Assembly (NCBI GenBank): GCA_017882785.1
Contig: JADGOV010000006.1
Span: 1-56,819, forward strand
Direction: 5' to 3'
Length of the DNA stretch: 56,819 nucleotides
Origin: Frankiaceae bacterium
Lineage (GTDB): Bacteria > Actinomycetota > Actinomycetes > JADGOV01
The notes beneath the pieces were generated by a model. That model searched no databases and had not been told where the DNA came from. It saw only the letters and a list, made by a program, of their open reading frames with translations. The first letter of the stretch is position 1, and every line of letters starts with the position of its first letter. Shown here in pieces: positions 1-5,719 of this stretch. A program made the position numbers and the translations under genes.

Positions 1-1416
1 CTGCTGTTGCCCGTCCTCCTTCTCTGTGTCTTTCTCGGCACAGCACTCAGCGCCGCGATCGGCACCCGTGCGCTGTCCGCGGCGGCGTCGACCTCCGCCG
101 ACGGGCAGCGGCTGCGGTTCCTGGCGGCCGCTCAGGCCGGCATCGACGCGACGGTTGCCCGGATCCGGACGGCCGACGCAGGCCCCTCTGTCAGCCTGCG
201 CGACCTGCCGTGTGCCGCAAGCGGGACGATCGGCACGGCGTCCGGTCTGGGCTATGACGTCCGCATCGCCTACTACTCCGGCGCACCTCTCGCACCGGCG
301 ACCCTCATCACCTGCTCCCCGCAGGGGCTGGTCGACCGGCCCGCCTACGCACAGCTGACCTCGGTGTCCCGGGGCGGGACGCCACCGGGCGCGCCGGGCA
401 CCACCGCGAGGGCGACGTACGCTTTCCGCTCATCGGGCCGGCCGCCGGGGGGGCTGCTCCGACTTGCCGCACCCGATGCGGCCCTGTGCCTCGGCACGGA
501 CTCCGGGGCGCAGTCCGCCCCGAGCGACCACCTCGTGCTCGCCGACTGCCAGCCTGCGTCGGCGGGCCAGCGGTGGCAGTACACCCCCCAGTTCCAGCTG
601 CGCGGCGCGGCCACGAGGCTCTGCCTGCGGGGCGGGTCGGCACCGGACGCCGCGGTGGTCCTGGCCGCGTGCACCTCGGCCGCCCTCGAGCGTTGGCAGC
701 TCACCGGTGCTTCCAACCTGCGCCTGGCGGCCGCGACAAGCCCGACGAGCGGGTGTCTGACCACCGCGGGCGCGCCCGCCGTGGCGGGGGTCGAGGTCGT
801 CCTGGGCACCTGCTCGAGCGGAGGAGACGTCGGGGCCGGCGTCGGGGCCGGCATTGTCGCGCTCCGGTTCCGGCCGGAACCGGGCGTGGGTTCCGGCGCC
901 GCCGGCAGCGCTCGGCAGAACCTCGTCAATGCCGGCACCGGGGATTGCCTGTCCGTGGCGGGCGGGGACGTCTCGGCCGGGGTCGTTGTCGAGTCGCCGT
1001 GCGTGTCAGCGGCCGAGGACGCCGTACCTCCGTGGAGCCAGCGGTTCGGCTTTCTGGCCGGTCTCCGTCCCGAGGTCGGGCAATACCGGACGACCGCTCC
1101 GGCGGGCACCTACTGCCTGCAGGCCGGCACGAACGACCGGCCGCCCGTCGACGGCACAGCGGTCGTCGCCGCGCCGTGCAACGACGGCGAGAGGTTCCAG
1201 CAGTGGACAGCCAGCGCGCAGTCCTCTTCGCCGGGAACCCGCTACACGATCGCCGGTCCGAGCGGGCTGTGCCTGGCGCTGCGGCCCGCGCCACCGCCGG
1301 GCGACGTCCACCGAGCCGCCGTCGCCGGCTGTGACGGCTCGCTGGAGCAGAAGTGGAACGCGCCGCCCCTGAGCGCAGCCACGGCCGACCTGGCCGGGAC
1401 GGGCGTCGGCGGATGA
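1..1416 (+). CDS. Pilus-associated protein with ricin-B-type lectin repeats (5' end outside window)
   Basis: The frame is open from base 1, so the true start lies upstream; about 471 residues are visible. The first ~20 residues are hydrophobic and run into an Ala-rich helix with an AAQAGIDATVARI stretch. This resembles the N-terminus of PilX-like minor pilus proteins, where a transmembrane helix is followed by an AxAGxxxA segment. From roughly residue 150 onward there are Cys-rich beta-trefoil-like units with QxW-type ends: QRWQY, ERWQL, QRFGF, QQWTA and QKWNA. These are typical of ricin-B carbohydrate-binding modules. The stop overlaps the start of the prepilin peptidase gene (ATGA), and PilM, PilN and PilO follow. 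A surface or pilus-tip sugar-binding role is inference. A secreted lectin unrelated to pili is the alternative. Confidence 0.7.
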   Translation: MLLPVLLLCVFLGTALSAAIGTRALSAAASTSADGQRLRFLAAAQAGIDATVARIRTADAGPSVSLRDLPCAASGTIGTASGLGYDVRIAYYSGAPLAPATLITCSPQGLVDRPAYAQLTSVSRGGTPPGAPGTTARATYAFRSSGRPPGGLLRLAAPDAALCLGTDSGAQSAPSDHLVLADCQPASAGQRWQYTPQFQLRGAATRLCLRGGSAPDAAVVLAACTSAALERWQLTGASNLRLAAATSPTSGCLTTAGAPAVAGVEVVLGTCSSGGDVGAGVGAGIVALRFRPEPGVGSGAAGSARQNLVNAGTGDCLSVAGGDVSAGVVVESPCVSAAEDAVPPWSQRFGFLAGLRPEVGQYRTTAPAGTYCLQAGTNDRPPVDGTAVVAAPCNDGERFQQWTASAQSSSPGTRYTIAGPSGLCLALRPAPPPGDVHRAAVAGCDGSLEQKWNAPPLSAATADLAGTGVGG

Positions 1417-2192
1417 TCTGGCTGCTGGCGGCGGTCGGGGTGCTCGGCATGGCTGTCGGCGACGTGCTCGCCGGCGTGGTGTGGCGGCTGAGCGCCGGCC
1501 AGCCCGGCCAGTGGCTGATCCTGCTCTGCCCGAGCTGTTCGGCGACCCGCCGGCCGCGAGAGTTCGCTGGCACGCTGGCCAGGTACCTGCTCCGTACCCG
1601 ATGCCGGCACTGCAGAGCGCGGGTCGGCGGGGGCGAAATGCTCCTACCGCTGGCGACAGTGGTGGTGTTCGTCCTGCTCGCCTCCCGCATCGGTGCCCGC
1701 CCCGACCTGCCCGCTTTCCTCTATCTGGGGGCGATCGGGGTGGCGTTGACCGCGATCGACCTGGCATGCCAGCGGCTGCCGGACGTGCTGACGCTGCCGT
1801 CTTACCCGGTCGGAATCGGGCTGCTCGCTCTCGGCCTGCTCGGCCGGGACAGTAGTGCGGACCTGCTGCGGGCCGTGCTGGGTATGGCGGCGTTCTTCGG
1901 GTTGTATTTCCTCATCGCCCTGATCTCGCCGGGAGGCCTGGGCTTCGGCGACGTCAAGCTCGCCGGCGTGGTCGGGCTCTACCTGGCCTGGCTCTCCTGG
2001 GGCACGTGGGCGGTGGGGCTCTTCGCCGGCTTCGTGCTCGGCGGTCTGACGGCGGTCGGCCTGCTGCTGATCGGGCGCGCCGGACGGAGCACCGCGCTGC
2101 CCTTCGGTCCGTTCATGCTCCTCGGGGCGCTGGTCGCGATCCTGGGCGGCGAGCCGATCGCCCGCTCGTATCTGGACCTGGCGATCCGTTAG
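1413..2192 (+). CDS. pilD: Prepilin peptidase (type IV leader peptidase, A24 family)
   Basis: This 259-residue polytopic membrane protein should cleave the leader peptide of type IV prepilins at the inner face of the membrane. The two catalytic aspartates expected for the family are visible: D116 in AIDLACQRLPD and D180 in GFGDVK. The cytoplasmic loop keeps two zinc-type pairs, C39/C42 and C64/C67, as in bifunctional PilD enzymes that also N-methylate the mature pilin. Several hydrophobic segments follow from about residue 76. The ATG at 1413 overlaps the stop of the preceding lectin-repeat gene, so the two are translationally coupled. The methyltransferase half is short, so methylation is uncertain. 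Confidence 0.9.
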   Translation: MIWLLAAVGVLGMAVGDVLAGVVWRLSAGQPGQWLILLCPSCSATRRPREFAGTLARYLLRTRCRHCRARVGGGEMLLPLATVVVFVLLASRIGARPDLPAFLYLGAIGVALTAIDLACQRLPDVLTLPSYPVGIGLLALGLLGRDSSADLLRAVLGMAAFFGLYFLIALISPGGLGFGDVKLAGVVGLYLAWLSWGTWAVGLFAGFVLGGLTAVGLLLIGRAGRSTALPFGPFMLLGALVAILGGEPIARSYLDLAIR

Positions 2193-2272
2193 CCCGAATG
2201 GCTTAAGGGTCACCCGTTTGCCGCCGAACCCCGAGGGGTCAGCGCGACTTTCCGACACCTGGGGGTCCGACC

Positions 2273-3343
2273 GTGCGCTCAAGCGGATCGCTGGGTCTTG
2301 ACCTCGGCACCTCCGCGGTGCGCGCCGTGGAGATCTCAGTGGGCGCTGACGGTCCACGGCTCGAGCGGTTTGCCCAGATCGGCCTGCCGCCGGGAGCCAT
2401 CAGCGCTGGTGCCATCCGGGAACCGAAGGCGGTGACCGCCGCGCTGAAGCGGCTCCGGGCGGTGGGCCGGTTTCGCAGCACCCGTGTCGCGGTCGGCGTG
2501 GCCAACCAACGAGTGGTGGTCCGGCAGGTCGAGCTGCCGTGGATGCCGGCGGCGGAGCTTCGAGCAGCCCTGGTGTTCCAGATGCAGGACGTGCTCCCAT
2601 TTCCCGTGGAGGAGGCGGTGCTCGACTACCACCCGGTCGAGGAGTTCGTCGGTGTGGGCGGTTCCCGGATGCTGCGAACGTTGGTCGTCGCTGCGGAGAC
2701 CGCGATGGTGACCGCCCTGCTGGCCGCCGTGCGGGCGGCCGGGATGCGCCCGGAGGTGGTCGATCTGACCACCTTCGCCATGCTGCGGGTCGCTACCCTC
2801 ACCGAGCCGTCGCGGACTGCCGGCCCGGATGCCGTGACCGAGGCGGTCGTCGACGTCGGCGCCGCCTGCACGAACGTGCTGGTCCACTCCAGTGGCGTTC
2901 CCCGCTTCGTCCGGATCCTGCCTCGCGGTGGGGAGGATGTCACCGAGTACCTCGCCGAACGCCTCGGCATCGCCCGTAACGACGCCGAGGCCCGCAAGCG
3001 GGGGGTGGCCCAGGACTCGGCCGGAACGCCGGAATCCGAGCATTTCGAACGCCAGATCCAGCAGGCGGCCATCGCCCGGCTGGTCGCTGAGATCTGCGGT
3101 TCGCTGGACTTCTACCGCGGCGAACCCGGTGCCCGGCCGTTGAGCCGGATGGTAATCAGCGGCGGTGGCACTCTGCTGGGCGGCCTGCCGGAGCAGCTGC
3201 GGGTGGCCAGTGGGCTGCCGGTGGTGGCCAGCCGGCCGATGACCGCGATCCCCAACGGGTCGGGCGTCTCGGCGCGCGCGGTCGAGCGCGGCGACCCGTT
3301 CCTCGCGGTGCCCCTTGGCTTGGCACTGCGGATGGCCGCATGA
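2273..3343 (+). CDS. pilM: Type IV pilus assembly protein PilM
   Basis: The 356-residue protein is an actin/FtsA-fold ATP-binding component that in other bacteria sits on the cytoplasmic face and binds the N-terminal tail of PilN. Near the N-terminus is the phosphate-1 motif GLDLGTSAVRAVE, a second nucleotide-binding motif lies around residue 190 (VVDVGAACTNVLV), and the C-terminal ISGGGTLLGGLPE motif completes the fold. A GTG start follows a G-rich stretch about 8 nt upstream. The 80-nt spacer from the peptidase gene holds no gene. The stop overlaps the pilN start (ATGA). Function is from family knowledge and context. Confidence 0.9.
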   Translation: MRSSGSLGLDLGTSAVRAVEISVGADGPRLERFAQIGLPPGAISAGAIREPKAVTAALKRLRAVGRFRSTRVAVGVANQRVVVRQVELPWMPAAELRAALVFQMQDVLPFPVEEAVLDYHPVEEFVGVGGSRMLRTLVVAAETAMVTALLAAVRAAGMRPEVVDLTTFAMLRVATLTEPSRTAGPDAVTEAVVDVGAACTNVLVHSSGVPRFVRILPRGGEDVTEYLAERLGIARNDAEARKRGVAQDSAGTPESEHFERQIQQAAIARLVAEICGSLDFYRGEPGARPLSRMVISGGGTLLGGLPEQLRVASGLPVVASRPMTAIPNGSGVSARAVERGDPFLAVPLGLALRMAA

Positions 3344-4131
3344 TTCGACCGAGCCTTCGACGGCGGGGGGCCGCGTCTGTTGGCACTGCTGGCACTGCCG
3401 AGCCGGCCTGGCCGGCGACCGCGACGCCACCAACCGCCCTGCCACGGATCAACCTGCTGCCCACCTCCCTCGTGCGAGCCCGTCGGCGGCGACGGCGGCA
3501 GGCCGGCTTGGCCGCGATCGTGCTGATCGCGGTGGCCCTCGTCCTGGTCGGTTACGTCGCGGCCGGGGACCGGCTGGATGCCGCGCAGCGCCGCCGGGAG
3601 CTGGCAGTCCAGCGCCAATGGCAGGTGCAGCAGGAGGTCGATCAGTACGCCGGGGTGCAGGCCACCTACCAGGCCGTCGACGCCTCCCGCGCGACGCTCC
3701 AAGCCGCCCTGGGCACGGAGGTCCGGTACAGCCGGATGCTCACCGCGCTGAGCAGCACCGTCCCGGCCTCGGTGCAGATCACGTCGGCCCGCTGGGAGCA
3801 GGGCACGGAGGACGGGGCCTTTGGTCTCTCACCCGGTGGCCTCTCACCCGGAACGGTGGCCCCGCCGGCCAGCGCGACGCCGGCACCGGACTCTTCAGGA
3901 GAGGACGACCAATTGGGCACGGTGACCATGTCGGGGCTCACCTCCTCCTATGACGATGTCGCCACCTGGTTGGACGCGCTCGAGCACATCACCGGCCTTG
4001 CCCATGCCACGCTGCTCACCGCCACCACGGTCAGCGGCGACGTGGGCGTCGTTCGCTTCACCTCCACGGCGGTCATCACCACAGCCGCGCTGTCGGGGCG
4101 CTACTCCGGGGCTGATGGGGGACTGCGATGA
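3340..4131 (+). CDS. pilN: Type IV pilus inner-membrane protein PilN-like
   Basis: This 263-residue bitopic membrane protein fits PilN. It has a cytoplasmic N-terminus with the PilM-binding-like stretch PRINLLPTSL at about residues 32-41, one transmembrane helix near residues 56-78, and a periplasm-side coiled domain after it. The middle contains a 15-bp direct duplication at 3826-3855 encoding LSPGG/LSPGT in a Pro/Ser/Thr-rich linker. It overlaps pilM upstream and pilO downstream by ATGA, so the PilMNO alignment subcomplex is encoded as a coupled unit. Sequence identity to characterised PilN is low, so the call rests on topology, the INLLP motif and gene order. Confidence 0.82.
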   Translation: MIRPSLRRRGAASVGTAGTAEPAWPATATPPTALPRINLLPTSLVRARRRRRRQAGLAAIVLIAVALVLVGYVAAGDRLDAAQRRRELAVQRQWQVQQEVDQYAGVQATYQAVDASRATLQAALGTEVRYSRMLTALSSTVPASVQITSARWEQGTEDGAFGLSPGGLSPGTVAPPASATPAPDSSGEDDQLGTVTMSGLTSSYDDVATWLDALEHITGLAHATLLTATTVSGDVGVVRFTSTAVITTAALSGRYSGADGGLR

Positions 4132-5126
4132 GGGCCCGAACCCAATACCTGATGGCCGCCGGGCTCGTCCTCGGGGTGCTGGTGGCCGGCTGGTTCATCT
4201 TCATCGGGCCCAAGGTGTCCGCGACCAACGAGGCGCGGGGCCAGACCCGGACCGCCGTGGAGAGCGCCATGGCGCTGCAGGTGCAACTCGCGATGCTGCG
4301 TCAGGAGGTCCCCGGACTGCCAGCGCAGCAACAGCGGCTGCGGGCCTTCGAGACGCGGATCCCACCCACCGTGGCCCTGCCCGAGCTGATCAGGCAGCTT
4401 TCCGCCGTCGCGCAGAGCAGCCAGGTCGAGATCGTCAACCTCACCCCGGCGACGCCGAGCACCCCCACCCCCTCCTTCGCACCGGCGCCGAGTCCATCCG
4501 GCTCAGCCGGCGCCCCGTCGCCGAGCAGCAGACCCTCGCCGAACGTCCCGCCGGCGGCGGTGACCCCGGGCCTCGCATATCCGGCGGTGCCGGCCACAAC
4601 GCCAGGCACAACGCCGGGCCCCTCGGGAACAGTCGCCCGATATCGCATCGTACCGATCACGATGGTCGTGACCGGCACCTACTTCCTCCTGGAGAACTTC
4701 CTCACCGCGGTCGAAACGATGCAGCGGGCGGTGGTCTTCACCTCGGTTGCGCTGGCTCCGGCGGACACGACACCGAGTCCGACGACGGGGGTGACGGGCC
4801 CGACGACCAGCCCGACGACCAGGCCGACGACCACTCCGACGACGAACCCCACGACCGGAGCCAGCCCGTCGGGCTCCGATCCCGTGCTGCGGGCGGTGCT
4901 CAAGGGCTCGGCCTTCACCTCCACGGTGAGTCTCCCGGCGGACTCCGCCTCCCCGCCACCATCGGTGCCGAACCCCCCGCCCAGCGCTGTGCCGACAGTG
5001 CCGACAACGCCCGGGGCACCGCCATCGGGCGCCGCTGCCCTCGGTCCCCCCGGCGACACGAGCCCGCCGGCGCCGACCCCTTCTGCCGGCGGGTCGTCGG
5101 CACAGCGGGCGAGGCGAGGACGGTGA
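4128..5126 (+). CDS. pilO: Type IV pilus inner-membrane protein PilO-like with PTS-rich linkers
   Basis: The 332-residue protein has a single N-terminal transmembrane helix at about residues 8-24, a coiled-coil-like segment, then a PilO-type extracytoplasmic domain. Unusually, the fold is interrupted by Pro/Thr/Ser-rich stretches: near residues 105-160, a tandem PTT-repeat tract encoded at 4800-4859, and a Pro-rich C-terminus. PilO normally pairs with PilN to align the pilus machine, and the order pilM-pilN-pilO supports that. The linkers may be O-glycosylated or span a thick wall, which is inference. The stop overlaps the next start (GTGA at 5123). Confidence 0.8.
   Translation: MRARTQYLMAAGLVLGVLVAGWFIFIGPKVSATNEARGQTRTAVESAMALQVQLAMLRQEVPGLPAQQQRLRAFETRIPPTVALPELIRQLSAVAQSSQVEIVNLTPATPSTPTPSFAPAPSPSGSAGAPSPSSRPSPNVPPAAVTPGLAYPAVPATTPGTTPGPSGTVARYRIVPITMVVTGTYFLLENFLTAVETMQRAVVFTSVALAPADTTPSPTTGVTGPTTSPTTRPTTTPTTNPTTGASPSGSDPVLRAVLKGSAFTSTVSLPADSASPPPSVPNPPPSAVPTVPTTPGAPPSGAAALGPPGDTSPPAPTPSAGGSSAQRARRGR
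4800..4859 (+). repeat. Five 12-bp tandem units inside pilO (Pro-Thr-Thr-X)
   Basis: Five in-frame 12-bp units, each ccg/ccc-acg-acc/acg plus one variable codon, encode PTTS, PTTR, PTTT, PTTN and PTTG. The array lies in a low-complexity linker, so unit number can vary without a frameshift. Confidence 0.85.
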
Positions 5127-5719
5127 CACCGATGGCATCGGGGCCCCACCGGGAAGACGCGCGGGATGGGCACGCATCCCAGGGCATCCCGCCATCAGCG
5201 TCGCGGCGGCCGATGTGGCCGCCGCGCACCGTTCTGCTGGGCGCCACCCTCGTCACCGCGGCCGCGCTCGCCGGTCTGGCCTACGGCGTGGTCACCGGCC
5301 CAGTTGCCGCCGCGCGCTACGGCCGCGTGATCGCCTTACACCCGGCACAGCGGTGGAGCGCGATACCGACAACCGCACCGACAACATTCCCCACAACAAC
5401 CCCCACACCGGTACCGACCGCGCAGGTACCCGCCGGGCCGGCAACGCCGTCGCCCACGGATCGGCCCACGGTCGGCAGCGCAGATGCCCGCGACCCGTTC
5501 CAGATTCTCTATCCCGCCGCGGTCAGTCCCAGCCCGCCCGCGAATGGCGCCCCGACGCCGTCGCCGCTCCCCGGCGCCACGCGTCCCGCCATGCCCGGAA
5601 ACCCCAGCACCACCACAACGCCGTCGCCGACGTCGACCCCGTCGACCCCGTCGAGTCGGCCGCAGCGCTCCGGGAGCCGACTGCTGCCGAGGACGACCTC
5701 GAGCAGGCACTCCTCCTGA
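5123..5719 (+). CDS. Pro/Thr/Ser-rich single-pass membrane protein of the pilus operon
   Basis: The family is not recognised by sequence. The 198-residue product begins at a GTG that overlaps the pilO stop (GTGA). It has a short charged cytoplasmic N-terminus, one transmembrane helix at about residues 35-57, and an extracytoplasmic part. The latter is almost entirely Pro/Thr/Ser-rich, except for a short segment ARDPFQILYPAAV near residue 125. That DPF segment after a disordered linker resembles PilP lipoproteins, which follow pilO in proteobacteria, but no lipobox is present. A PilP-like partner of PilN/PilO is a positional inference. Larger frames reading through this region upstream are shadows of pilO. 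Confidence 0.6.
   Translation: MTPMASGPHREDARDGHASQGIPPSASRRPMWPPRTVLLGATLVTAAALAGLAYGVVTGPVAAARYGRVIALHPAQRWSAIPTTAPTTFPTTTPTPVPTAQVPAGPATPSPTDRPTVGSADARDPFQILYPAAVSPSPPANGAPTPSPLPGATRPAMPGNPSTTTTPSPTSTPSTPSSRPQRSGSRLLPRTTSSRHSS

What the first reader, a model, noticed from the sequence alone, without database searches (positions are those of the whole stretch)
1..5719. Type IV pilus operon with a lectin-repeat pilus component
A protein with a pilin-like hydrophobic N-terminus and several ricin-B QxW units is translationally coupled to the prepilin peptidase and PilMNO. A carbohydrate-binding minor pilin would suit attachment to polysaccharide or host surfaces. Actinobacterial type IV pili of this kind are poorly studied.
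Basis: partly seen in the sequence, partly recalled or inferred. Interest (0 to 1): 0.52.

Follow-up and report, generated by a model that had tools for sequence, protein, structure and literature searches.

The report
Motorless pilus locus with lectin tip
The start of this contig holds half of a bacterial type IV pilus gene cluster whose tip subunit carries two ricin-like sugar-binding folds, an arrangement common in actinobacteria, but in this organism the pilus motor, the main fibre subunit and the conserved putative sugar site all appear to be lost, so it probably no longer builds an ordinary sticky pilus.

Summary
Window 1-1416 encodes 471 residues of a PilX-like minor pilin: a long pilin helix, a small beta module and two ricin-B/CBM13 beta-trefoils; it overlaps pilD and is followed by pilM-N-O and aroC. 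The window is a contig end; contig C55 of the same genome ends in pilT-pilC-pilV and fits upstream. Relatives supply the missing leader: prepilin-type, not Sec. Ricin-type PilX proteins are widespread in Actinomycetes (79 loci in one scan, pilD and pilM beside 45), and I found none described in the papers I could search. The functional reading does not hold for this organism. The genome has no detectable PilB or major pilin; its only PilT lacks the Walker A lysine (29 of 102 near-invariant columns changed); PilC is equally altered; PilX has lost the invariant CLD...CKQ...WNQ cluster kept by its relatives, while keeping all conserved cysteines. Yet no stop codon has accumulated, which free drift would rarely allow. 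Most likely this is a type IV pilus locus that lost its motor and adhesin function and is partly retained, pilD because it is the only prepilin peptidase found in a genome that also has Tad genes.

The parts
1..1416 (+). pilX-like minor pilin with two ricin-B/CBM13 trefoils; 5' end cut by the contig end (leader missing)
4..174 (+). pilin helix of that protein (residues 2-58)
   Evidence: sequence shared with relatives
445..879 (+). beta-trefoil 1 (residues 149-293)
898..1365 (+). beta-trefoil 2 (about residues 300-455); the family's invariant residues at 307-346 are replaced
1413..2192 (+). pilD, prepilin peptidase; the only A24 peptidase found in the genome
2273..3343 (+). pilM
3340..4131 (+). 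pilN
4128..5126 (+). pilO
5132..5719 (+). membrane protein with a Pro/Thr-rich tail in the position of the protein that follows pilO in relatives; homology to it not shown

Best explanation
The locus descends from a standard actinobacterial type IVa pilus operon (pilB-T-C-A-V-W-X-D-M-N-O-aroC) whose last minor pilin, PilX, carries two ricin-B/CBM13 trefoils. Shown: the architecture, the operon, its wide distribution, and the losses below. Inferred for the family: PilX is the K-type subunit that caps the pilus tip, so the trefoils are presented there as a glycan-binding adhesin. In this organism the machine has lost its extension motor (PilB), its recognisable major pilin and PilT's ATP site, and PilX has lost the family's invariant trefoil-2 residues while keeping its cysteines. 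So it most likely cannot extend, retract or bind sugar in the usual way. It looks retained rather than freely decaying: all frames are open, gene overlaps are kept and codon structure is normal. PilD is probably kept because it is the only prepilin peptidase found and the genome also has Tad genes. The other parts (PilT', PilC, PilV, PilX, PilM-N-O) are inferred to form a membrane-bound, motorless minor-pilin complex of changed or waning function.
For: Two Ricin_B_lectin stretches and sub-threshold PilX_N; helix plus two trefoils; V-W-X order and prepilin-type leaders in relatives. Only two T2SSE genes in the genome, PilT' and TadA, while 9 of 9 other genomes examined have a full-length PilB-type ATPase; no pilin by profile, pattern or PilA query. 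PilT' Walker A GPSGSGVST. Near-invariant columns changed: PilT 29 of 102, PilC 27 of 68, PilD 9 of 31, PilM 2 of 20; long terminal branches for PilT and PilC, aroC normal. PilX: Asp318 of the family is D in 79 of 79 relatives, Ser here; 10 of 10 conserved cysteine columns kept. No stops, and free drift gives that with a joint frequency of about 1e-4. Single A24 peptidase.
Against: The genome is a 230-contig assembly, estimated 99% complete; pilB, pilA and pilW could lie in gaps, and the C55-C29 junction was not observed. The PilV on C55 keeps a prepilin-type start with Glu5, as a working system would. That the replaced PilX residues contact sugar rests on recalled knowledge of CBM13 folds. The drift simulation assumes independent genes and one base composition. 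Nothing tests expression or function. No genome of the same order is held.
Confidence: 0.55

Rival explanations
1. A dying relic: the pilus was lost and the remaining genes, apart from pilD, drift without function; they are still open only because G+C is high and the loss is fairly recent.
For: Losses concentrate in PilT, PilC, the PilD N-terminal domain and the PilX site, and PilT/PilC have extreme branches. G+C of 72% makes stop codons rare.
Against: No stop in any gene; joint frequency under free drift about 1e-4, or 4e-4 at 78% equilibrium G+C, without counting indels. Gene overlaps, codon-position G+C and PilM (2 of 20 columns changed) are intact.
Confidence: 0.27
2. A working type IV pilus whose pilB and major pilin lie in assembly gaps or are too divergent to be recognised; PilX is a functioning tip lectin with altered specificity.
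For: Open frames; PilV with a prepilin start; PilM normal; the gap between C55 and C29 hides at least pilW and the start of pilX.
Against: pilB and pilA precede pilV in nearly all relatives, and on C55 pilT is followed directly by pilC and pilV and preceded by a divergent gene, so the gap is not where they would be. PilB absent by profile and by protein query. PilT and PilC lost many near-invariant residues.
Confidence: 0.13
3. C55 is a stray contig of another organism, and the window's own upstream genes are simply missing from the assembly.
For: The junction was not observed; estimated contamination 1.56%.
Against: G+C matches (0.719 and 0.723); the gene order fits with no duplicated gene; PilX and PilD on the window's own contig are altered too. 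The genome would then have no type IV pilus ATPase at all.
Confidence: 0.05

Closest known systems
Modular minor pilins of Streptococcus sanguinis (PilB with a vWA module, PilC with a concanavalin A-like lectin module; PMC8179133 and PMC9934059, passages)
   Same: A pilin module joined to a bulky binding module, likely at the pilus tip; the PilC lectin binds glycans.
   Different: Here the carrier is PilX-like and the module is a tandem ricin-B/CBM13 trefoil; in the window protein the family's invariant residues are replaced and the pilus motor is missing.
Type IV pili of Actinoplanes zoospores (known to me here only as cited in PMC8325347, passages; the original paper is not held)
   Same: Type IV pili in actinomycetes; ricin-type PilX loci were found in many Actinoplanes species.
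   Different: Those pili are reported to be functional; the window locus lacks PilB and a recognisable major pilin.
CBM13 / R-type lectin domains (Streptomyces xylanase xylan-binding domain)
   Same: Trefoil 1 superposes at Z about 19, rmsd 1.6-2.2.
   Different: Two trefoils on a pilin; conserved residues of trefoil 2 replaced in the window protein.
PilT retraction ATPase
   Same: Full-length match, E=2.5e-81 to a solved PilT chain.
   Different: Walker A lysine and conserved histidines replaced.

Membership tests
Working type IVa pilus system | prepilins with a class III leader | tested here: met
   PilV on C55 (PDAG|AMVVE, 31% to PilV of G001); for PilX itself the leader is off the contig and seen only in relatives
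Working type IVa pilus system | prepilin peptidase | tested here: met
   Peptidase_A24 and A24_N above cut-off; C-terminal peptidase domain changed at 1 near-invariant column
Working type IVa pilus system | extension ATPase PilB | tested here: not met
   none in the genome as held, present in 9 of 9 other genomes examined; assembly gaps remain possible
Working type IVa pilus system | major pilin | tested here: not met
   no N_methyl match, no GF[TS]L[IV]E pattern, no PilA match beyond chance
Working type IVa pilus system | PilC platform and PilM-N-O | tested here: met
   Pfam matches above cut-off, though PilC has lost 27 of 68 near-invariant columns
PilT retraction ATPase | Walker A lysine and conserved histidines | tested here: not met
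   GPSGSGVST; H252R and H259R
PilX (K-type) modular minor pilin | PilX_N profile | tested here: inconclusive
   14.2 bits against a cut-off of 25.5 with the start missing; 5 of 50 slot proteins match at E<=0.01
PilX (K-type) modular minor pilin | pilin helix, position after V-W, extra C-terminal module | tested here: met
   helix 2-58 and trefoils; position before pilD shared with relatives; W labelled in 75 and V in 73 of 79 ricin-type loci
R-type lectin / CBM13 | beta-trefoil fold | tested here: met
R-type lectin / CBM13 | conserved residues of the putative sugar site as in its ricin-PilX relatives | tested here: not met
   Asp 79 of 79 to Ser; Lys, Gln, Asn and others replaced; that they contact sugar is recalled
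R-type lectin / CBM13 | binds carbohydrate | not testable with these tools
   needs a binding assay

The most novel reading that the evidence does not exclude
A type IV pilus apparatus kept by selection after losing its motor and major pilin: an ATP-dead PilT, PilC and PilM-N-O hold PilD-processed minor pilins in the membrane as a static surface complex, or hand them to the genome's Tad machinery, with which they would share the only prepilin peptidase. The lectin module is kept as a cysteine-rich fold with a new ligand or a purely structural role.
Probability: 0.35. Interest if true: 0.65.

Novelty: new variant of a known kind. Interest (0 to 1): 0.45.

Why it matters
First, actinobacteria widely carry a tip-type minor pilin with two ricin-like lectin folds, also in named isolates (Actinoplanes, Demequina, Jonesia, Cellulomonas), which offers a direct way to test how type IV pili of monoderm bacteria bind sugars. 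Second, the window genome looks like a natural motor knock-out of such a system in which part of the apparatus was nevertheless kept; this bears on what PilC, PilM-N-O and minor pilins do without pilus extension.

Tried and rejected
Sec-secreted lectin that merely sits beside pil genes: rejected, because aligned relatives have a prepilin-type leader and the V-W-X order.

PilT' as a different ATPase (PilB, PilU, TadA): rejected; its best solved-structure matches are PilT chains and it is 51% identical to the PilT of G001.

Absence of pilB as a mere rearrangement: tested; relatives without pilB beside pilT (G045, G092) have it elsewhere, G000 does not.

ORF 5132-5719 as a shortened version of the protein after pilO: not supported by sequence comparison (E=0.82).

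Gave nothing useful: genome contigs with the window protein alone; solved structures by sequence with the window protein; own-genome search for PilW. Paper searches joining ricin, ricin-type or beta-trefoil with pilin, PilX or minor pilin, and lectin with PilX and minor pilins, found no description of this protein in their listings. PMC4300822, which holds 'ricin B lectin' and 'pilin' (passages), concerns a secreted enzyme. PMC3832589 was seen only in the listing.

Some G001 controls (pilT, pilN and others) seem to be cut in the wrong frame and are not used. Labels include the window genome's own proteins as queries, so its WIN and L009 rows are trivial; independent support is. The simulation used chosen targets; one search replaces it. 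Three slot proteins without N-termini (L023, L042, L063) were dropped before the alignment.

Full report
What is there. The window is contig C29 of a 3.2 Mb, 230-contig genome and begins at base 1 of that contig. It opens inside a gene: 1-1416 encodes 471 residues with two Ricin_B_lectin stretches (E=2e-22) and a sub-threshold PilX_N match (14.2 bits, cut-off 25.5). Its stop overlaps the ATG of pilD at 1413. pilM, pilN and pilO follow, then an unassigned membrane protein, then aroC, aroK and aroB (the aro names are mine from the sequences, aroC also by its label).

Structure. An AlphaFold2 model from 48 sequences (mean pLDDT 83.1, pTM 0.69) shows one helix 2-58, a small beta module and two beta-trefoils. 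Residues 149-293 match Streptomyces CBM13 xylan-binding domains at Z about 19, rmsd 1.6-2.2. Two-trefoil R-type lectins span 149-455, but with rmsd near 15, so the relative placement of the two trefoils differs or is not well predicted.

Upstream half. C55 (8.3 kb) carries, on one strand and running to its end, pilT, pilC and a prepilin similar to the PilV of G001 (31%, E=4e-12). The two contig ends fit the order seen elsewhere. The junction itself was not observed.

Relatives. PilM occurs in 83 of 393 genomes of the class. I fetched 82 further loci around PilM hits and labelled them, with those already held, by phmmer. The usual order is B-T-C-A-V-W-X-D-M-N-O-aroC; one family has X after D-M-N-O-V-W, and others have a divergent arrangement. 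Where D follows the pilins, the gene before it is as a rule PilX-like with a variable C-terminal part. Of 53 PilX proteins collected, 50 with usable N-termini were aligned; 13 of these 50 match the ricin profile. A scan of the GTDB species genomes with a ricin-PilX alignment returned 79 loci, from Actinoplanes, Paractinoplanes, Dactylosporangium, Planobispora, Demequina, Jonesia, Timonella, Cellulomonas, Leucobacter, Microbacterium and others. In these 79, W is labelled in 75, V in 73, pilD and pilM in 45 each and pilB in 37. Prepilin-type leaders are visible in most; in a minority of rows the automatic trimming missed the leader or picked the wrong place. Some loci are the same genomes; counts on residues below use a set reduced at 95% identity.

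What is lost here. PilB: the genome has two T2SSE matches, PilT' on C55 and TadA on C124, while each of 9 other genomes examined has a full-length PilB-type ATPase. Major pilin: none by profile, pattern or PilA query. PilT': Walker A reads GPSGSGVST. Every other ATPase in which the motif was found has the lysine; a few cut, short or low-scoring ORFs showed no motif, and in the named loci 73 of 75 ATPase ORFs have it, the other two being cut by the locus end. Of columns at least 97% conserved elsewhere, this genome changes 29 of 102 in PilT (maximum among 88 others: 8), 27 of 68 in PilC (maximum 5 of 88 others), 9 of 31 in PilD (maximum 2 of 114; eight of the nine in the N-terminal domain) and 2 of 20 in PilM (maximum 5 of 125). 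Terminal branches agree: PilT 1.52 (others at most 0.38), PilC 1.83 (0.33), PilD 1.09 (0.56), PilM 0.92 (0.73), PilN 1.11 (1.08), PilO 0.76 (1.00), aroC 0.21 (0.36), 25 taxa each. PilX: among 79 non-redundant relatives 39 columns are near-invariant; 14 differ in the window (one is only the missing leader glycine), 9 of them between residues 307 and 346, including the Asp present in 79 of 79; all 10 near-invariant cysteine columns are kept. The corresponding Asp of trefoil 1, present in 64 of 79, is Gly here.

Decay or retention. A free-drift simulation, stopped when each gene reached its observed loss at near-invariant columns, left no stop codon in 94 (PilT), 42 (PilC), 146 (PilD) and 20 (PilX) of 600 runs each; the product is about 9e-5, or 4e-4 at 78% equilibrium G+C. 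Codon-position G+C of PilT' and PilC resembles that of aroC. This argues that the genes were under some constraint during most of the change. The simulation leaves out indels, which would make drift less likely still, and assumes independent genes. PilD is the only A24 peptidase found. C124 carries TadA with two T2SSF genes and C147 another T2SSF pair, so a Tad role for PilD is plausible; this is inference.

What is known. Modular pilins, lectin ones included, are described: 264 architectures in PMC8179133 (passages) and the glycan-binding PilC of S. sanguinis in PMC9934059 (passages). [quoted passage not shown] equating PilX with K is recalled. 'Ricin' does not occur in the main text of PMC8179133, PMC9934059, PMC6916266 or PMC3244431. 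The dataset of PMC8179133 that lists all architectures could not be read, so a ricin-pilin entry there is possible. A Walker A lysine mutation in PilB abolishes pilus-dependent motility (passage in PMC11656802).

Verdict. In this genome the system is an altered, apparently motorless version. No other genome of the same order is held, so the choice between slow decay and a new role stays open.

Noticed in passing
L104, L106, L107, L108, L110 and others: In 33 of the 79 ricin-PilX loci, mostly Actinoplanes and Paractinoplanes, the (V-)W-X minor pilin genes have no pilB, T, C, D, M, N or O label in the fetched stretch, so minor-pilin sets seem to stand apart from the assembly genes there.
   Followed up: no
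PilX slot before pilD in L017-L098: The C-terminal part of PilX varies between genomes: 37 of 50 aligned slot proteins have no ricin match, and a few match Bactofilin or an ice-binding-like adhesive domain. The slot may exchange tip modules.
   Followed up: partly
L015:5305-7368: The PilV-like minor pilin of genome G001 is 687 residues long with a repetitive C-terminal part, apparently a second modular pilin in the same operon.
   Followed up: no
genome contig C147:1566-3012 (L099): A second pair of T2SSF (TadB/TadC-like) genes with no T2SSE ATPase found beside it.
   Followed up: no
L072, L074, L077, L080, L084, L086, L088, L089, L091-L093, L096: A different arrangement in other families: M-N-O genes divergent from a cluster with one PilB and two PilT-like ATPases, with intact Walker A motifs.
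   Followed up: no
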